The notes below the pieces were generated by a model that saw nothing but the letters and a program-made list of their open reading frames with translations, did no database searches and was not told the DNA's origin. Shown here in pieces: positions 21,768 to 29,300 of a DNA stretch of 64,000 nt. Source of the stretch: Actinomadura sp. CNU-125 (lineage in GTDB: Bacteria > Actinomycetota > Actinomycetes > Streptosporangiales > Streptosporangiaceae); NCBI RefSeq assembly GCF_001942465.1, contig NZ_MKJY01000044.1, positions 1-64,000 on the forward strand, in the 5' to 3' direction. Numbering within the stretch: the stretch's first letter is position 1; the number at the start of each line of letters is the position of its first letter. The position numbers were made by a program, and so were the translations under genes.

Positions 21768-22208
21768 TCAGTTGGGGCCGCAGGCGCAGGCGGTTCCGGC
21801 CGTGGCCGGTTCGCCGGGCTCGGCGCTCCTGCCGAGGGTGTCGGCGTCGGCCTTGACCGTGTAGACCTCCCACGGCTCGGTGCCGGGGGCGGTGACCCAC
21901 ACCTTGTCCTGGAGCGCGTAGCAGCAGGACGTGTCGTTCTCCTCGAACGTGGCGAGATCGGCGTCGGCGAGGCGGGTCGCGGCGGCGGCGACCTCGTCGG
22001 TGGTCTCGACCTCGACGCCGAGGTGGTCCAGGCGGGTCGGCTCGTCCTCGGTTCCTTCGAGGAGGACGAGCTTGAGCGGCGGGGTCGCGATGGCGAAGTT
22101 GGCGTAGCCGGGCCGCACCTTGGCGGGCTCGGTGCCGAACAGCTTGGAGTAGAACGCGATCGACGCGTCGAGGTCGGCGACGCGCAGTGCGAGCTGGACA
22201 CGGGCCAT
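21768..22208 (-). CDS. arsI: ArsI/CadI family dioxygenase (organoarsenical C-As lyase-like)
   Basis: 146-residue VOC-fold protein. RVQLALRVADLDASIAFYSKLFGTEPAKVRPGYANFAI and the vicinal-cysteine signature SCCYALQDKVWVTAPGTEPWEVYTV identify the ArsI/CadI group. ArsI cleaves the carbon-arsenic bond of trivalent methyl- and aryl-arsenicals with Fe(II) and O2; the cysteine pair binds As(III). The C-terminus has two further Cys (TACACGPN). ATG 22208 follows GGGAGG. Divergent from arsR with a 71-base shared control region, so it should be induced with the ars operon. CadI (cadmium-induced) cannot be excluded. Confidence 0.87.
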   Translation of the reverse strand: MARVQLALRVADLDASIAFYSKLFGTEPAKVRPGYANFAIATPPLKLVLLEGTEDEPTRLDHLGVEVETTDEVAAAATRLADADLATFEENDTSCCYALQDKVWVTAPGTEPWEVYTVKADADTLGRSAEPGEPATAGTACACGPN

Positions 22209-22244
22209 GACAGCCTCCCTGTATCGAAGTTTCTCTATCCAGAG

Positions 22245-22279
22245 TTGCACGCTGCATCGAGGGGCGTCAATATAGACGC
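22245..22279 (+). promoter_or_regulatory. leaderless arsR promoter with operator dyad
   Basis: TTGCAC (22245-22250) and CAATAT (22268-22273) are 17 bases apart, six bases before the arsR ATG. The dyad GCGTC-aatata-GACGC (22264-22279) overlaps the -10 and ends at the start codon, an ideal place for ArsR to block transcription. Confidence 0.6.
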
Positions 22280-22669
22280 ATGTCGAAACAAGAGCTGCCC
22301 GTCCTCGGACAGGACGGCGTGGGCGGCTGCTGCCCCGGCCTGCTGTCCGCCCCGCTCACGACGGACGAGGCGGCCGAGCTGGCGCGGGTGTTCAAGGCGC
22401 TGGGCGATCCGGTGCGGCTCCGGCTCCTGTCGATGATCGCCTCGCGCGCGGGCGGGGAGGTGTGCGTGTGCGACCTGACGCCCGCGTTCGAGCTGGCGCA
22501 GCCGACGATCTCCCACCACCTGAAGCTGCTGCGCGAGGCCGGTCTGATCGACGGGGAGCGGCGGGGCACCTGGGTGTACTACCGGCTGGTTCCGGAGACG
22601 ACCGACCGGCTGGCGAACATCCTGACCCGGCCCGGCGGGCCGCCGCTGCCGTCGGACGGGTGCGCGTGA
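22280..22669 (+). CDS. arsR: arsenic-responsive repressor ArsR
   Basis: 129-residue winged-helix repressor: ELARVFKALGDPVRLRLLSMIAS, the As(III)-binding helix EVCVCDLTPAF with the CxC pair, the recognition helix AQPTISHHLKLLREAGL, and wing GERRGTWVYYRL. A further CC pair (GGCCPG) near the N-terminus may add a ligand. Binding of trivalent arsenic should release it from DNA. First gene of arsR-acr3-arsC/N; its stop overlaps the acr3 start (GTGA). Confidence 0.93.
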   Translation: MSKQELPVLGQDGVGGCCPGLLSAPLTTDEAAELARVFKALGDPVRLRLLSMIASRAGGEVCVCDLTPAFELAQPTISHHLKLLREAGLIDGERRGTWVYYRLVPETTDRLANILTRPGGPPLPSDGCA

Positions 22670-23736
22670 CGGCGTCTCCCGTGCGGCTCTCGTTCACCGA
22701 CCGGTACCTCGCGGTGTGGATCCTGGCGGCGATGGCGGCCGGGCTCGGGATCGGACGTCTGGTGCCGGGCCTGGGCGGGTGGCTGGCCGCGGTGGAGGTC
22801 GGCGGGATCTCGCTGCCGATCGCGGTCGGGCTGCTGGTGATGATGTATCCGGTGCTGGCCAAGGTCCGTTATGACCGGCTGGACGCCGTGACCGGCGATC
22901 GGCGGCTCATGGCCGCCTCGCTGGTGGCGAACTGGGTCGTGGGGCCTGCCGTGATGTTCGTCCTGGCTTGGGTGTTCCTGGCCGACCAGGCCGACTACCG
23001 GACCGGTCTGATCATTGTGGGCCTGGCGCGCTGCATCGCCATGGTCATCATCTGGAACGACCTCGCCTGCGGCGACCGGGAGGCCGCCGCGGTCCTCGTC
23101 GCGCTCAACTCGGTGTTCCAGGTGCTCGCGTTCGGGCTGCTCGGGTGGTTCTACCTGGATCTGCTGCCCGGATGGCTGGGGCTCGGCGAGGGGCGGGGCC
23201 TCGACGTCTCCGCGTGGGGGATCGCCGTCAACGTGCTGGTGTTCCTGGGCGTCCCGCTCGCCGCGGGGTATCTCACCCGCCGGGTCGGCGAGCGGCGGCT
23301 CGGCCGGGAGCGCTACGAGGAGCGGGTGCTGCCGAGGCTGGGGCCGTGGGCGCTGTACGGCCTGTTGTTCACGATCGTCGTCCTGTTCGCCCTCCAGGGC
23401 GCGACGATCACCGCTCGCCCGTGGGACGTCGCGCGCATCGCCCTGCCGCTGCTGGCCTACTTCGCCATCATGTGGTTCGGGACGTTCGCGTTCGGCAGGG
23501 CCATCGGCCTCGCCTACGACCGGACCGCGACGCTGGCGTTCACCGCGGCGGGCAACAACTTCGAGCTCGCCATCGCCGTGGCCATCGCCACCTTCGGGGC
23601 CGCCTCGGGGCAGGCGCTCGCGGGGGTCGTCGGGCCGCTCATCGAGGTCCCGGTGCTGGTCGGTCTCGTGTACGTGTCGCTGGCCTGGCGGCGTCGCTTC
23701 GCCGCGTCGGAGAGGGAGCCGGTTCGTGTCGGATAA
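22666..23736 (+). CDS. acr3: arsenite efflux permease Acr3
   Basis: 356-residue, ten-helix member of the Acr3 family that exports arsenite using the proton gradient. Diagnostic are GLARCIAMVIIWNDLACGD, with the essential cysteine of helix 4, and FTAAGNNFELAIAVAIATFG in helix 9. GTG 22666 overlaps the arsR stop by four bases, and the gene's own end overlaps the next start by 11 bases, so the operon is tightly coupled. Often called arsB in annotations, although Acr3 is unrelated to true ArsB. Confidence 0.94.
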   Translation: MTASPVRLSFTDRYLAVWILAAMAAGLGIGRLVPGLGGWLAAVEVGGISLPIAVGLLVMMYPVLAKVRYDRLDAVTGDRRLMAASLVANWVVGPAVMFVLAWVFLADQADYRTGLIIVGLARCIAMVIIWNDLACGDREAAAVLVALNSVFQVLAFGLLGWFYLDLLPGWLGLGEGRGLDVSAWGIAVNVLVFLGVPLAAGYLTRRVGERRLGRERYEERVLPRLGPWALYGLLFTIVVLFALQGATITARPWDVARIALPLLAYFAIMWFGTFAFGRAIGLAYDRTATLAFTAAGNNFELAIAVAIATFGAASGQALAGVVGPLIEVPVLVGLVYVSLAWRRRFAASEREPVRVG

Positions 23737-24616
23737 GCCGAGTGTCCTGTTCGTGTGCGTCCACAACGCGGGGAGGTCGCAGATGGCGGCGGCGTTCCTC
23801 GCCCGGGCGTCCGGTGGCGCGGTCGATGTGCGGTCCGCCGGGTCGGCGCCGGCGGAGGAGGTGAACCCGGCGGTGGTGGAGGCGATGGCCGAGGTCGGTA
23901 TCGACGTCTCCGCCGAAGTGCCGAAGGTGCTGACGGCCGACGCGGTCCGGGTCTCGGACGTGTGCGTGACCATGGGGTGCGGTGACGCGTGTCCGGTCTT
24001 CCCCGGCAAGCGCTACCTCGACTGGGATCTCGCGGACCCCGCCGGGCAAGGCGTTGCGGCCGTCCGGCCGATCCGGGACGAGATCGAGCGGCGGGTGCGC
24101 GCCCTGCTCGACGATCTCGGTGCGGACGCGGTGCGGATCGTCCCGATGGGGGTCGAGCACGCAGATCAGGTGCTGGCGATCTACCGGGCGGGGATCGACG
24201 AGGGCGACGCCACCTTCGAGACCGCCGCGCCGGGCTGGGACGAGTTCGACGCGGCCAAGCTCGCGGAGCATCGGCTGGTCGCCCTCGACGAGCGGGACGA
24301 TGTGCTCGGGTGGGCGGCGGTCAGTGCGGTGTCCGAACGGTGCGTCTACGCCGGGGTCGTCGAGCTTTCCCTTTACGTGCACCCACGGGCGCGGGGGCGC
24401 GGCGTCGGGCTGGCTCTGCTGCGGGCGCTCCTCGCCTCGACGGAGGCGGCGGGTGTCTGGACCGTCCAGGCCGGGATCTTCCCGGAGAACGCCGCCAGCC
24501 TCGCCCTGCATCGGAAGGCCGGGTTCCGGACGATCGGCGTTCGTGAGCGGGTCGGCCGCCACCATGGGACGTGGCGGGACGTGGTGCTGCTGGAGAGGCG
24601 CAGCCCCGTCATTTGA
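23726..24616 (+). CDS. arsC: arsenate reductase ArsC fused to ArsN1-type acetyltransferase
   Basis: 296-residue two-domain protein. Residues 1-140 are a low-molecular-weight-phosphatase-type arsenate reductase: VLFVCVHNAGRSQ (Cys11-x5-Arg17 loop) and CVTMGCGDACPVFPGKRYLDWDLADPAG. Residues 145-296 are a PAT-like GNAT: YRAGIDEGDATFETAAPGWDE, VELSLYVHPRARGRGVGLAL (acetyl-CoA loop), and GIFPENAASLALHRKAGFR. This second part matches the ArsN1 group, which acetylates the arsenic antibiotic arsinothricin. There is no stop or frame change between the halves. Starts at GTG 23726 after GAGAGGGAG. The activity of each half is inferred from family. Confidence 0.87.
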   Translation: MSDKPSVLFVCVHNAGRSQMAAAFLARASGGAVDVRSAGSAPAEEVNPAVVEAMAEVGIDVSAEVPKVLTADAVRVSDVCVTMGCGDACPVFPGKRYLDWDLADPAGQGVAAVRPIRDEIERRVRALLDDLGADAVRIVPMGVEHADQVLAIYRAGIDEGDATFETAAPGWDEFDAAKLAEHRLVALDERDDVLGWAAVSAVSERCVYAGVVELSLYVHPRARGRGVGLALLRALLASTEAAGVWTVQAGIFPENAASLALHRKAGFRTIGVRERVGRHHGTWRDVVLLERRSPVI

Positions 24617-25472
24617 GCAGCCTGGACATGCGGCGGTCGGCCAGGGGTTTGCCTCCGGTCTGGCAGGTGGGGCAGTACTGGAGGGACGAGTCGGCGAAGG
24701 AGACCTCGCGGACGGTGTCGCCGCAGACGGGGCATTTCTCGCCGGTTCGGCCGTGGACGCGGAGGCCGGTCTTCTTCTCGCCCTTGAGGTCCTGGGCTTC
24801 GAGGCCGCGGGAGCGTTCGACGGCGTCTCGCAGGGTCGAGACGATCGCGTCGTGCAGGGTGGCGACGTCGGTGTCGTCGAGGGTGGCGGCGATCTTGAAC
24901 GGGGACATGCGGGCGGCGTGCAGGACCTCGTCGGAGTAGGCGTTGCCGATGCCCGCGATGACCTTCTGGTCGCGTAGGAGGCCCTTGATCTGGGTGCGTT
25001 TGCCCGTGACGATCTCGCGCAGGGCCTCCGGGGTGAACGTCTCGTCCAGGGGGTCGGGGCCGAGGGCGGCGATGCCGGGGACGTCGGCGGGGTCTCGGAC
25101 GACGTAGACGGCGAGGCCCTTCTTCGTGCCGGCCTCGGTGAGGTCGAAGCCGGAGCCGTCGTCGAGGTGGAGGCGGAGGGCGAGCGGGTTCTTGGCGGAC
25201 GGGCGGGCGGGTCTGGTGGGGACCTCGTCGCGCCAGCGGAGCCAGCCGGCGCGGGCGAGGTGGATCACCAGGTGGACGCCGTCGACGTCGAGGTCGATGA
25301 ACTTGCCGTGCCGGGCGGCGTTCGTGATCGTCAGGCCGCCGAGGGCGGTCACCGGCGGGTCGTAGGTCTTGAGCGCGGAGATGGCGAGAACATCGACGCG
25401 GGCGACGGCCCGGCCGACCGCGCGTTCGCGCAGGAAGCCGGTCAGCGCCTCGACCTCTGGCAACTCGGGCAT
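24609..25472 (-). CDS. Fpg/Nei family DNA glycosylase
   Basis: 287-residue base-excision repair enzyme that removes oxidised bases and cuts the abasic site. It starts MPELPEVEAL: Pro2 is the nucleophile and Glu3 the catalytic acid, which fixes the start at ATG 25472. The helix-two-turn-helix region has KGLLRDQKVIAGIGNAYSDEVL, and the C-terminal zinc finger is CPVCGDTVREVSFADSSLQYC plus PTC. Substrate preference (8-oxoguanine or oxidised pyrimidine) cannot be told. Its stop overlaps the convergent arsC-arsN1 end by eight bases. Not part of the ars operon. Confidence 0.9.
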   Translation of the reverse strand: MPELPEVEALTGFLRERAVGRAVARVDVLAISALKTYDPPVTALGGLTITNAARHGKFIDLDVDGVHLVIHLARAGWLRWRDEVPTRPARPSAKNPLALRLHLDDGSGFDLTEAGTKKGLAVYVVRDPADVPGIAALGPDPLDETFTPEALREIVTGKRTQIKGLLRDQKVIAGIGNAYSDEVLHAARMSPFKIAATLDDTDVATLHDAIVSTLRDAVERSRGLEAQDLKGEKKTGLRVHGRTGEKCPVCGDTVREVSFADSSLQYCPTCQTGGKPLADRRMSRLLK

Positions 25473-25511
25473 GGGACCAGTATCGGTGATGGCGGTGCTC
25501 GTCCACACCCC

Positions 25512-25648
25512 TGTGGATGGCTGTGGATAACCCTGTGCATAACTTGGCGATCGGCCCTGTGGGACGGGCCAGCGGCGGCGATACGTCCACAAACACCGAC
25601 ATATCGCAGGGGAAGGGCCGACCGGTTGTGCACACAGGCTGTGGATAA
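25512..25648. other. cluster of DnaA-box-like 9-mers
   Basis: TGTGGATAA occurs twice (25522-25530, 25640-25648), with one-mismatch copies TGTGGATGG (25512-25520) and TGTGCATAA (25534-25542). These match the complement of the DnaA box TTATCCACA. The cluster lies upstream of the glycosylase gene and in otherwise empty DNA (25473-25814). Confidence 0.4.
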
Positions 25649-25814: not shown

Positions 25815-26021
25815 ATGAGCACCAGCACCTACACCGTCGCCGGGATGACCTGCGGGCACTGCGTCAGCGCGGTCACGGAGGAAGTCGGCGGGGTCGCGGG
25901 CGTCACGAACGTGGACGTCGACCTGCAGTCCGGCACCGTGACCGTGACGAGCGAGGGACCCGTCGACGTCGAGCTCATCCGGGCCGCCGTCGACGAAGCC
26001 GGTTACGAACTCAAGGCATAA
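25815..26021 (+). CDS. copZ: copper chaperone CopZ (HMA domain)
   Basis: 68-residue single heavy-metal-associated domain. The metal loop GMTCGHC provides two Cys ligands, with a ferredoxin-like fold ending EAGYELKA. It should carry Cu(I) in the cytosol to the downstream P-type ATPase. The GAGAGAGGTT before ATG 25815 is a good ribosome site. First gene of the copper operon. Confidence 0.9.
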   Translation: MSTSTYTVAGMTCGHCVSAVTEEVGGVAGVTNVDVDLQSGTVTVTSEGPVDVELIRAAVDEAGYELKA

Positions 26022-26039
26022 CGGACGGAGTGAACGGTC

Positions 26040-26989
26040 ATGAACACCGCGACCAAGCTGGGGGCCTACGCTCTGGGCCTGGCCGCCGTCTTCGGCGCGC
26101 CCTCGGGGCCGGTAACGTCACCGGTCCCGTGGGCGCGGCCCCGGAGACGGAGAGCCACGGGCACGGCGGCGGGCACGCGGGCGGGACCGCCGCGAGTACG
26201 CAGGCTCCGGGCGGGCTCCAGGTTTCGGAGGACGGGTACACGCTGGCACCTCGGCGGTCGACCCTTGAGGCCGGGGAAAAGACGAACTTCTCCTTCACGA
26301 TCAACGGTCCGGACGGCAAGCCCGTCACCGGGTTCGAGCCGCTGCACGGCAAGCGGCTGCACCTGATCGTCGCGCGCCGGGACCTGTCGGGGTTCCAGCA
26401 TCTGCACCCGACGCTGGCGGGGGGCGTCTGGACCGTTCCGCTGACCCTGCCGGACGCGGGCGTCTACCGGTTCTTCACCGACTTCAAGCCGGTCGGTGCC
26501 GATCGCCAGTACACCTTGGGGACCGACATCAGCGTTCCCGGCGACCTGAAGCCGGTGCCGCTGCCCGAGCCGGAGCAGGTGGCGAAGGTGGACGGCTACG
26601 AGGTGCGGCTCGCGGGCACGCTCGTCCCGGGCGAGAGCAGCGAGCTGACGCTGAGCGTCGGCCGCAAGGACGGCGAGCCGGTCACCGACCTCCAGCCGTA
26701 CCTGGAGGCTTACGGGCACCTGGTCGCGCTCCGCGCGGGCGACCTCGCCTACCTGCACGTCCACCCGGACGGCGAGCCGGGCGACGGCGAGACGAAGCCG
26801 GGGCCGGGGATCACGTTCTTCGCCGAGGCCCCGAGCGCGGGCGCCTACCGGCTCTACCTGGACTTCAAGCACGGCGACGAGGTCAGGACGGCCGAGTTCA
26901 CCGTGTACGCGGGGCAGGGCGCGGTTCCAGCCGCGCCCGAGCCGCGCGAGAGCGAAACACCCGACGATGGCCACGGCCACACGCACTGA
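26040..26989 (+). CDS. His-rich envelope protein of the copper operon (frameshifted)
   Basis: About 316 residues. One N-terminal membrane helix or signal ([15 protein letters not shown]) is followed by a His-rich segment ([11 protein letters not shown]), two similar beta-rich halves ([25 protein letters not shown] and ..[21 protein letters not shown]), and a His-rich tail DDGHGHTH. The HLHP and HVHP motifs and His clusters suggest copper binding outside the membrane. Such proteins commonly sit between copZ and copA in actinomycetes. The start ATG 26040 and the main part are in different frames; one extra G in GGGG near 26105 gives [18 protein letters not shown] and repairs it. Biochemical role unknown. 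Confidence 0.72.
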
Positions 26990-27002
26990 CGAAGGAGGGG
27001 CG

Positions 27003-29300
27003 ATGACTACCGGTGCGGAATCCGGGCGGGTCGAGCTGGCGATCGGCGGGATGACGTGCGCCTCGTGCGCCGCCCGCATCGAGAAGAAGCTCAACCGGAT
27101 GGAAGGCGTGACCGCGACCGTCAACTACGCGACGGAGAAGGCGCGGGTCGAGTTCACCGGGGACGTGTCCCCGGACGACCTGATCGCAACGGTCGAGAAG
27201 ACGGGGTACACCGCCGAACTGCCGCCTCCGCCGGAGGCGGCGGCCGATGCGCCCGAGCCGGTCGACGAGCTGGCGCCGCTGCGGCAGCGGCTGCTCACCT
27301 CGGTGGTGCTCGCGGTGCCGGTGATCGCGATGGCGATGGTCCCGGCCCTGCAGTTCGAGTACTGGCAGTGGCTGTCGCTGACGCTGGCCGCGCCCGTCGT
27401 GGTGTACGCGGGGTGGCCGTTCCACCGGGCGGCGTGGACGAACCTGCGGCACGGCGCCGCGACGATGGACACGCTCGTCTCGATGGGGACGCTCGCCGCG
27501 TTCGCCTGGTCGCTGTGGGCGCTGTTCTTCGGGACGGCCGGCGAACCGGGCATCAAGCACGGTTTCGAGTTCTCGATGACCCGTACCGACGGCTCGATGA
27601 ACATCTACCTGGAGGCCGCGGCGGGCGTCATCGCGTTCATCCTCGCGGGCCGCTACTTCGAGGCGCGGTCCAAGCGGCGGGCGGGCTCGGCGCTGCGGGC
27701 GCTGCTGGAGCTCGGCGCGAAGGAGGTGTCGGTCGTCCGGGACGGCCGCGAGGAGCGGATCCCGGTCGAGAGCCTGCAGGTCGGAGACGTCTTCGTCGTC
27801 CGTCCCGGCGAGAAGATCGCCACCGACGGGACGGTCGAGGAGGGCTCGTCCGCGGTGGACGCGTCGCTGCTGACGGGCGAGTCGGTGCCGGTGGAGGTCG
27901 CCCCGGGCGACACGGTCGCGGGCGCGACGGTGAACGCGGGCGGACGGCTGCTGGTGCGGGCGACGCGGGTCGGTTCGGACACGCAGCTCGCGCAGATGGC
28001 GCGGCTCGTCGAGGACGCGCAGACCGGCAAGGCGCGGGTGCAGCGGCTCGCCGACCGGATCTCGGGGATCTTCGTGCCGGTGGTGATCGCGCTGGCCGTC
28101 GCGACGCTGGGCTTCTGGATCGGGACGGGCGCGGGTACGGCGGCCGCGTTCACCGCGGGGGTCGCGGTACTGATCATCGCCTGCCCGTGCGCGCTGGGCC
28201 TGGCCACCCCGACCGCCCTCATGGTCGGAACGGGCCGCGGCGCCCAGCTCGGGATCCTGATCAAGGGCCCGGAGGTGCTGGAGTCGACGCGGACGATCGA
28301 CACGGTCGTCCTCGACAAGACCGGCACGGTCACGACGGGGAAGATGGCGCTGGTGGACGTCGTCACGGCCGACGGCGTGGACGACCGGGAGGCGCTCCGG
28401 CTGGCGGGGGCGCTGGAGGACGCCTCGGAGCACCCGATCGCGCAGGCCATCGCGCGGGGCGCGCGGGAGCGGGCCGGTGAACTCGGGACGGTCGAGGACT
28501 TCGCGAACGTCGAGGGCCTGGGCGTCCAGGGCATGGTGGACGGGCACGGCGTGCTCGTCGGCCGTCCGCAGCTCCTCGCGGAGTGGTCGCAGAAGCTGAC
28601 GCCCGAGCTGGAGGCGGCGATGGCGGACGCGCAGGCGCTCGGCCGCACGGCGGTCGCGGTCGGCTGGGACGGTGCGGCGCGCGCGGTCCTGACCGTCGCG
28701 GACGAGGTGAAGCCGACGTCGGCGGAGGCGGTGCGGCGGCTGCGCGCGCTCGGGCTGCGGCCGGTGCTGCTGACCGGCGACAACGAGGCCGTCGCGCGGA
28801 CGGTCGCGGACACCGTCGGGATCGACGAGGTCATCGCGGACGTCCTGCCGAAGGACAAGGTCGACGTCGTCAAGCGGCTGCAGGACGAGGGCCGGACGGT
28901 CGCGATGGTCGGGGACGGCGTGAACGACGCGGCGGCGCTCGCCCAGGCCGACCTGGGGCTCGCGATGGGCACCGGCACGGACGCGGCGATCGAGGCGTCG
29001 GACCTGACGCTGGTGCGCGGCGACCTGCGGGCGGCGGCGGACGCGATCAGGCTGTCGCGGCGCACGCTCCGGACGATCAAGGGGAACCTGTTCTGGGCGT
29101 TCGCCTACAACGTGGCCGCGCTGCCGCTGGCGGCGGCGGGGCTGCTCAGCCCGATGATCGCGGGCGGGGCGATGGCGTTCTCCTCGGTGTTCGTGGTGAG
29201 CAACAGCCTGCGGCTGCGCGGGTTCAAGGCGCTCGCCGACGACGACGGGCCGGTTCCGGCGGCCGCGGCGCCGCAGCGTCCGAAGGTGCCGGCGGGCTGA
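27003..29300 (+). CDS. copA: copper-exporting P1B-type ATPase CopA
   Basis: 765 residues. One N-terminal HMA domain ([21 protein letters not shown]), about eight membrane helices, TGES in the actuator domain, the ion-binding [11 protein letters not shown] of helix 6, the phosphorylated Asp in DKTGTVT, the nucleotide-domain SEHPIAQA, and hinge [12 protein letters not shown]. The CPC motif indicates Cu(I) or Ag(I) export. ATG 27003 follows AAGGAGGGG. Completes the copZ operon; complete and undamaged. Confidence 0.95.

What the first reader, a model, noticed from the sequence alone, without database searches (positions are those of the whole stretch)
23726..24616. Arsenate reductase fused to an ArsN1-like acetyltransferase
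One uninterrupted frame joins an ArsC with intact catalytic Cys and a GNAT with the ArsN1 pattern. ArsN1 inactivates arsinothricin, an organoarsenical antibiotic. The operon with ArsI, ArsR and Acr3 would then resist inorganic, methylated and antibiotic arsenic. The fusion would keep the two activities at fixed ratio.
Basis: partly seen in the sequence, partly recalled or inferred. Interest (0 to 1): 0.63.

Follow-up and report, generated by a model that had tools for sequence, protein, structure and literature searches.

The report
Arsenate reductase fused to acetyltransferase
In a soil actinomycete, two neighbouring arsenic-resistance genes, one for an arsenate-reducing enzyme and one for an acetyltransferase, have merged into one gene; the same merger happened separately in a second lineage, which suggests the two enzymes belong together, although what the acetyltransferase acts on is still unproven.

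Summary
One open frame, 23726-24616 (+), encodes a three-cysteine, Cg_ArsC1'-like arsenate reductase (residues 1-131) joined to a GNAT acetyltransferase (137-292). It is not an assembly error: a one-contig genome of the same genus carries the same fusion (88% identical), both domains under purifying selection. In 24 related loci the two genes are adjacent but separate, 18 with a 4-nt stop/start overlap, so a small deletion across a coupled junction made the fusion. Planotetraspora thailandica fused the same pair independently (one clade rejected, p-AU 4.9e-7).

The ArsN1 reading is partly supported. The GNAT scores below curated cut-offs for ArsN1a (135.9 vs 170 bits), ArsN1b and PAT. It belongs to a separate, well-supported clade nearest ArsN1a and far from characterised Pseudomonas putida ArsN1, with Ser at PpArsN1 Arg75 in 91 of 91 members compared. 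The clade is tied to ars genes (45 of 80 loci; 0 of 40 control GNATs), so an arsenic-related amino-acid toxin is the likeliest substrate; arsinothricin is unproven. ArsC-ArsN fusions are already mentioned in print (review citing Chauhan 2009). New here: the clade, the repeated fusion and its origin.

The parts
23726..24616 (+). fused gene arsC-GNAT, 296 aa, GTG start, stop included
   Evidence: translation; independent fused homologue in G474
23726..24118 (+). ArsC domain, residues 1-131, low-molecular-weight phosphatase fold, Cg_ArsC1'-like
   Evidence: PF01451 72.1 bits; best PDB sequence 3t38, 1.8e-44, named thioredoxin-dependent Cg_ArsC1'
23756..23758 (+). Cys11, P-loop nucleophile of ArsC
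   Evidence: CVHNAGRS motif; alignment with S. aureus ArsC
23978..23992 (+). Cys85 and Cys89, resolving cysteines of the redox triad
   Evidence: align with two cysteines of S. aureus ArsC
24119..24145 (+). fusion junction (residues 132-140); replaces the arsC stop and GNAT start found in relatives
   Evidence: junction alignment with five unfused loci; census of unfused pairs; relaxed dN/dS over residues 131-140
24134..24601 (+). GNAT N-acetyltransferase domain, residues 137-292, ars-linked clade nearest ArsN1a
   Evidence: NF040503 135.9 bits, below cut-off 170; tree; model pLDDT mostly over 90 in this half and Foldseek matches to PAT/ArsN1 structures
24332..24340 (+). Ser203-Glu204-Arg205, positions of PpArsN1 Arg75-Ala76-Arg77
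   Evidence: column comparison
22666..23736 (+). acr3 arsenite efflux gene, upstream in the same direction
   Evidence: TIGR00832 425.7 bits over cut-off 282.8
22280..22669 (+). arsR regulator gene, first gene of the presumed operon
   Evidence: NF033788 100 bits over cut-off 55
21768..22250 (-). arsI/cadI-family gene, divergent from arsR
   Evidence: NF041414 197.4 bits over cut-off 116

Best explanation
The gene encodes a bifunctional detoxification protein of an arsR-acr3-[arsC-GNAT] operon. The N-terminal half is a thioredoxin-type arsenate reductase that makes arsenite for Acr3 to export. The C-terminal half is an acetyl-CoA-dependent GNAT that most likely acetylates, and so inactivates, the alpha-amino group of an amino-acid toxin of the arsinothricin/phosphinothricin kind. 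In most relatives seen the two genes are neighbours with a 4-nt stop/start overlap; a small deletion of 3n+2 bases across that overlap joined them in frame. The two activities probably stay independent, with the GNAT halves pairing to form the active site, so that the protein is a dimer carrying two reductase domains. Shown: the fusion, its origin, its independent recurrence, intact catalytic residues, purifying selection, the ars linkage. Inferred: both activities, the substrate, dimerisation, co-transcription.
For: Open frame and domains. Second fused copy in a one-contig genome, dN/dS 0.14-0.17 in both domains. Junction alignment: relatives have the two genes separate, the window lacks the overlapping stop/start; of 27 distinct adjacent same-strand pairs among the loci held, 24 are split, 18 of these with a 4-nt overlap in the GNAT frame (repeat views removed). 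Independent fusion in Planotetraspora, whose sister (a Sphaerisporangium metagenome assembly) is split; one clade of the three fused rejected, p-AU 4.85e-7. Redox triad kept. GNAT clade near ars genes in 45 of 80 loci against 0 of 40 control GNAT loci of the same genus. The clade has Phe, Arg, Tyr and Glu at PpArsN1 positions 33, 77, 89 and 85 in 91 of 91 rows. Clade member next to acr3-arsC in Hymenobacter, near arsH/arsD on a Klebsiella plasmid, fused to ArsR on Rhodococcus plasmids. Foldseek: PAT with L-PPT (9igl) and ArsN with AST (5wph) among the matches. PpArsN1 acetylates AST and its active site is built from two chains (PMC6465285, passages and whole sections 9, 12, 21).
Against: GNAT is below the ArsN1a, ArsN1b and PAT cut-offs. 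Ser replaces Arg75, which contacts arsinothricin in PpArsN1, in 91 of 91 clade rows. Within the genus only 12 of 40 clade loci have an ars gene other than arsR within 5 kb, so not every member need be arsenic-related. The genome has other ArsC and Acr3 copies, so the reductase half may be redundant. In G474 homology to the window begins in mid arsR, arsI is absent and acr3 has an in-frame deletion of about 215 codons, so there the fusion persists without its operon's pump. Redundant Cys-based ArsC families TIGR02691 and TIGR02689 are matched only below their cut-offs. No assay exists. Only 3 fused cases were seen.
Confidence: 0.55

Rival explanations
1. The GNAT half acts on a different, not yet known organoarsenical or amino-acid toxin, and not appreciably on arsinothricin; the Ser75/Phe124 pocket marks a distinct specificity.
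For: Separate clade with 100/100 support and a long stem (1.09), Ser at position 75 and Phe at 124 in 91 of 91 rows; below the curated cut-offs; ars linkage.
Against: Arg77, Phe33, Tyr89 and an acidic residue at 85 are kept; 4 of 7 proteins over the ArsN1a cut-off also have Ser at 75 and 7 of 7 have Phe at 124, and ArsN1a members themselves rest on annotation, not on an assay that I saw.
Confidence: 0.3
2. The GNAT half is a general phosphinothricin/methionine-sulfoximine-type acetyltransferase whose place beside arsC is incidental or only for co-regulation.
For: Best PDB matches are PAT/MAT-type structures (4jxq, PA4866, 9igl); 28 of 40 genus loci show no ars gene other than arsR nearby.
Against: Repeated adjacency to arsC, acr3, arsI, aqpS or arsO in several families and phyla, and fusions to ArsC (twice) and ArsR; PPT_acetyltrans 49 bits against a cut-off of 300.
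Confidence: 0.15
3. The GNAT half helps arsenate resistance directly, by working with ArsC, rather than by acting on an antibiotic.
For: A review states that arsN confers arsenate resistance through a mechanism that needs arsC or arsD (PMC12607644, passages, citing work I could not read); adjacency to and fusion with ArsC.
Against: That arsN may be of the other (ArsN2) type; the GNAT also occurs fused to ArsR and in arsR-GNAT pairs without an adjacent arsC; no known mechanism.
Confidence: 0.08
4. The fusion itself is a neutral joining of two coupled genes with no functional consequence beyond a strict 1:1 ratio (compatible with the best explanation).
For: Junction residues vary freely (dN/dS about 0.97, length differs by one residue between the two fused sisters); unfused relatives mostly have 4-nt overlaps.
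Against: Two independent fusions of the same pair, though two events are few.
Confidence: 0.45
5. Sequencing or assembly error joining two genes.
For: The window lies in a draft genome of 603 contigs.
Against: Same fusion in an independent one-contig genome; the junction is 11, 26 and 29 nt shorter than in three split relatives, not a single-base indel.
Confidence: 0.01

Closest known systems
ArsC-ArsN / ArsD-ArsN fusions reported by Chauhan et al. 2009 (known to me only through the review PMC6205960, passages)
   Same: An arsC joined to an N-acetyltransferase gene of ars operons, taken there to suggest a shared role.
   Different: The paper was not held, so its ArsN type is unverified; PMC6465285 cites it (reference 20) where it describes clade 2, ArsN2, like glutamate N-acetyltransferases. 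The window GNAT belongs to the PAT/ArsN1 side.
Other ArsC fusions: Acr3-ArsC of Mycobacterium, ArsR-ArsC, AqpS-ArsC of Salinispora (PMC6205960 and PMC6514093, passages)
   Same: Small ArsC domain joined to another product of the same operon.
   Different: Partners there are pump, regulator or channel; here a second enzyme. The word acetyltransferase does not occur in the main text of PMC6514093, which analyses 357 actinobacterial ArsC proteins.
Pseudomonas putida ArsN1 (5JTF, 5WPH, 6M7G)
   Same: GNAT fold; in the window, equivalents of Phe33, Arg77, Tyr80, Tyr89, Gly122, Val158; ars context.
   Different: 26-27% identity; Arg75 is Ser, Ile31 is Ala, Ala124 is Phe, Asp85 is Glu; other part of the tree, with ArsN1b; stand-alone protein.
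NCBIfam ArsN1 family A (NF040503)
   Same: Nearest named family on the tree (branch joining the ArsN1a group and the window clade 95/83) and best profile score.
   Different: 135.9 bits against a cut-off of 170; Gly (89 of 91) or Ser instead of Arg or Lys at position 122; own clade supported 100/100.
Corynebacterium glutamicum Cg_ArsC1' (3t38)
   Same: Arsenate reductase domain, MGCGDxCP motif.
   Different: The aligned part begins at chain residue 80 of 213, so 3t38 has an N-terminal extension that the window lacks, and no GNAT.

Membership tests
ArsN1 family A (NF040503) | whole-protein score at or above the curated cut-off of 170 bits | tested here: not met
   135.9 bits; 0 of 65 genus genomes over the cut-off; fused G474 130.7, Planotetraspora 125.6
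ArsN1 family A (NF040503) | falls inside the clade of proteins over the cut-off | tested here: not met
   separate clade, 100/100; the 7 ArsN1a rows form their own group, 97/82
ArsN1 family B (NF040504) | score at or above 210 bits | tested here: not met
   85.4 bits
ArsN1 (PpArsN1) | arsinothricin-contact residues Arg75 and Arg77, acidic residue at 85 | tested here: inconclusive
   Arg77 and an acidic residue kept, Arg75 replaced by Ser in 91 of 91; 4 of 7 ArsN1a also have Ser
ArsN1 | encoded in an ars operon | tested here: met
   acr3 and arsR upstream in the window; 45 of 80 clade loci near ars genes
ArsN1 | acetylates arsinothricin | not testable with these tools
   needs an enzyme assay
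Phosphinothricin N-acetyltransferase (NF040502) | score at or above 300 bits | tested here: not met
   49.2 bits
GNAT superfamily | Acetyltransf_1 profile and GNAT fold | tested here: met
   PF00583 46.5 bits over 20.7; Foldseek TM-score by target 0.79-0.89 for the GNAT structures among the 50 rows listed
LMW-phosphatase-type arsenate reductase (ArsC) | P-loop C-x5-R-S and the two further redox cysteines | tested here: met
   Cys11, Cys85, Cys89; PF01451 over its cut-off
ArsC pI258 family (TIGR02691) | score at or above 174.3 bits | tested here: not met
   75 bits; nearest is Cg_ArsC1' instead
ArsC glutaredoxin type (TIGR02689) | score at or above 157.6 bits | tested here: not met
   71.7 bits
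ACR3 efflux transporter | score over 282.8 bits | tested here: met
   425.7 bits
ArsI/CadI | score over 116 bits | tested here: met
   197.4 bits

The most novel reading that the evidence does not exclude
The GNAT half defines a third, unnamed class of ars-operon acetyltransferase, spread from actinomycetes to Hymenobacter and Klebsiella plasmids and repeatedly fused to ArsC or ArsR, that disarms an organoarsenical antibiotic other than arsinothricin; its spread would then report a hidden class of arsenic-containing natural products in soil.
Probability: 0.25. Interest if true: 0.65.

Novelty: new variant of a known kind. Interest (0 to 1): 0.4.

Why it matters
If the GNAT acts on an arsenic-containing antibiotic, one protein defends against inorganic arsenate and an organoarsenical weapon at once, and the clade gives a genomic marker for exposure to such weapons. 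Repeated fusion is independent evidence that the GNAT belongs to arsenic metabolism. The clade scores below the curated ArsN1 models in every member tested, and the records that I opened give it generic names such as 'GNAT family N-acetyltransferase', so its arsenic link is invisible in annotation.

Tried and rejected
Assembly error: rejected by the second fused genome. Single origin of all three fusions: rejected (the split sister of the Planotetraspora fusion is a metagenome assembly, so a sequencing error there cannot be ruled out). Streptomyces GNAT hits that reach back to query residue 93-110 looked like partial fusions: of the seven that came with a locus (L089, L090, L091, L095, L099, L107, L115), four (L089, L090, L095, L099) have an adjacent arsC and are split; the other three have no adjacent arsC hit there; further hits of this sort without a locus were not checked. 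Canonical ArsN1 membership: rejected by cut-offs, tree and residues. A first dN/dS run compared the two fusions without aligning a one-residue length difference and gave a false 60% GNAT identity; replaced by the codon-aligned. Chauhan 2009 could not be read. Literature; I opened seven papers in part (PMC6465285, PMC6205960, PMC12607644, PMC10190100, PMC6514093, PMC9518604 by sections or passages) and otherwise saw listings only (one search lists 20 of 66); the only mention of ArsC-ArsN fusions that I met is in PMC6205960.

Limits of the counts. One search returned 41 rows (5 fused); repeat views of one place were removed by hand, and L256 and L272, counted apart, are one record (same contig position, identical sequence), so 27 distinct loci remain (3 fused, 24 split) and the 19 of 25 become 18 of 24. 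One search left out loci L197-L204 and L210-L239 (repeat views or ArsN1b references). Context survey: I fetched 40 of 43 clade hits and 40 of the more than 100 listed (the 20 best and 20 from lower down), so it is not a random sample; one search counts 45 of 80 after removing overlapping hits, one search counts 47 of 80 (12 of 40 genus, 35 of 40 Streptomyces) without that step; a few of these hits are weak (30-37% identity); arsR alone was not counted. The 40 control loci are weak GNAT matches in the same genus, some cut by contig ends. Residue counts use 91 of 92 clade rows; L157 was dropped as shorter than 140 residues.

Full report
What is there. The frame 23726-24616 on the plus strand is open for 296 codons and ends in a stop. 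Its first half is a low-molecular-weight-phosphatase-type arsenate reductase, its second half a GNAT acetyltransferase. The reductase is closest among solved structures to the thioredoxin-dependent Cg_ArsC1' of Corynebacterium glutamicum (3t38) and keeps the P-loop Cys11 and two further cysteines (85, 89) that align with cysteines of S. aureus ArsC. Upstream in the same direction lie arsR (22280-22669) and acr3 (22666-23736), overlapping each other by 4 nt and the fused gene by 11 nt; arsI (21768-22250) is divergent. All three pass curated family cut-offs.

Is it real? The window sits in a draft genome of 603 contigs, so an artefact had to be excluded. G474, a one-contig genome of the same genus, has the same fused gene, 296 residues, 88% identical, with the same downstream gene. 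Codon-aligned dN/dS is 0.144 for the ArsC part, 0.174 for the GNAT part and about 0.97 for the ten junction codons: both domains are maintained, the joint is free to drift. The genus is very probably Actinomadura: the same-genus genome G001 has a contig of the same length (304518), with the hit at the same place, as a named record of Actinomadura nitritigenes.

How it arose. In five near relatives the aligned junctions show arsC ending and the GNAT gene starting in ATGA or GTGA, in the +2 frame. The window is 11, 26 and 29 nt shorter there than three of them (L010, L039, L009), a 3n+2 loss that removes both signals and puts the frames in phase. Among 27 distinct places with an adjacent same-strand pair in the loci held, 24 are split and 3 fused (repeat views removed); 18 of the 24 split pairs have the 4-nt overlap in the GNAT frame (one duplicate removed). 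The third fused case is Planotetraspora thailandica (L259), in an arsI / arsR-[arsC-GNAT] cluster. On a tree of both domains its sister is a split Sphaerisporangium locus (a metagenome assembly), while the window and G474 pair together (100/98) next to a split locus of their own genus; holding the three fused rows together is rejected (p-AU 4.85e-7). The same fusion has therefore most likely happened at least twice. On Rhodococcus plasmids a member of the same GNAT clade is fused to ArsR instead (295 aa).

What the GNAT is. The best curated match is ArsN1 family A, but at 135.9 bits against a cut-off of 170; ArsN1b gives 85.4 (cut-off 210) and phosphinothricin acetyltransferase 49.2 (cut-off 300). 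None of 65 genus genomes has any match over the ArsN1a cut-off. In a tree of 64 sequences the window clade is one side of a branch with 100/100 support, nearest the ArsN1a group (joining branch 95/83), while the only ArsN1 whose activity I read about, P. putida ArsN1, lies with ArsN1b and the Streptomyces hygroscopicus BAR protein (root drawn at the midpoint). The clade also holds proteins from Klebsiella and Hymenobacter plasmids. At the positions that contact substrate in PpArsN1 (positions from PMC6465285, passages), all 91 clade rows of at least 140 residues have Phe33, Arg77 and Tyr89, Glu for Asp85, Ser for Arg75 and Phe for Ala124. Four of seven ArsN1a proteins over the cut-off also have Ser at 75 and all seven have Phe at 124. 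So the pocket is related, not identical, and the substrate cannot be read off.

Link to arsenic. Of 80 clade loci fetched, 45 have arsC, acr3, arsI, aqpS or arsO within 5 kb: 12 of 40 in the genus and 35 of 40 in Streptomyces by the laxer count, against 0 of 40 for other GNAT genes of the same genus (Fisher p 1.9e-4 for the genus alone). The loci were not a random sample (see Tried and rejected), and 28 of 40 genus loci have none of these genes nearby. Layouts seen are arsI / arsR-aqpS-arsC-GNAT (Kitasatospora), arsI / arsR-acr3-arsC-GNAT (G012) and arsR-GNAT beside arsO with acr3 or an aquaporin.

Model. AlphaFold2 on 25 aligned rows gave mean pLDDT 86.6 and pTM 0.65; the last ArsC helix (110-131) is followed directly by the first GNAT strand (137-140), so the linker is only a few residues. 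The modest pTM leaves the relative placement of the domains open. Foldseek matches are PAT, MAT-type and ArsN1 structures for the GNAT half and 3t38 for the ArsC half. In PpArsN1 the site is built from two chains; if this holds here the fusion should dimerise through the GNAT half. This is inference.

A result that cuts both ways. In G474 no arsI is found in the 19 kb fetched, homology to the window begins in mid arsR, and acr3 has an in-frame deletion of about 645 nt, yet the fused gene is intact; another full acr3 lies about 50 kb away. The window genome has three acr3 genes and further stand-alone arsC copies but one clade GNAT at E 1e-20 (9 of 43 candidates scored). This suggests that the GNAT half may be what keeps the gene, and it weakens the picture of one integrated operon.

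What is known. That arsN may be fused with arsC or arsD is stated in PMC6205960 (passages) with reference to Chauhan et al. 2009, which I could not read; another review says that arsN confers arsenate resistance only together with arsC or arsD (PMC12607644, passages). ArsC fusions to Acr3, ArsR and an aquaglyceroporin are known. Arsinothricin acetylation is shown for PpArsN1 (PMC6465285: abstract, sections 9, 12 and 21, and passages). I met no description of this GNAT clade, of its fusion to a Cg_ArsC1'-type reductase or of its repeated origin (searches, mostly seen as listings), within an open-access library only.

Verdict. A genuine, selected fusion of two ars-linked enzymes that arose at least twice; the arsinothricin claim is plausible and untested, and canonical ArsN1 membership is not met.

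Noticed in passing
L207:3614-4501 and L070:3779-4666 (Rhodococcus plasmids): A member of the same GNAT clade is fused behind an ArsR-type regulator (295 aa in L207, domains checked; L070 seen from its annotation only), annotated only as an ArsR/SmtB factor.
   Followed up: partly
L206 (Klebsiella pneumoniae plasmid pE17KP0029-2): Two different GNAT genes flank an arsH/arsD region on a clinical plasmid; one belongs to the window clade (52% identical), the other scores best with ArsN1b (147 bits, below its cut-off). 1045 Klebsiella plasmid records match the window GNAT.
   Followed up: partly
L117:8520-8795 (G474): The sister operon has no arsI, homology begins in mid arsR, and acr3 has an in-frame deletion of about 215 codons, with the fused gene intact.
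   Followed up: partly
window 24609-25592 (-): A formamidopyrimidine-DNA-glycosylase-like gene converges on the fused gene and overlaps its end by 8 nt; a 92% identical gene lies at the same place in G474.
   Followed up: no
window 25815-29300: A metal cluster (CopZ-like chaperone, a 319-aa protein with no Pfam or NCBIfam match, heavy-metal P-type ATPase) lies downstream.
   Followed up: no
L209, L069 (Streptomyces plasmids): The clade GNAT is paired with its own ArsR next to an MFS transporter and oxidoreductases, beside arsO with acr3 or an aquaporin; this set could be a detoxification or biosynthetic unit.
   Followed up: no
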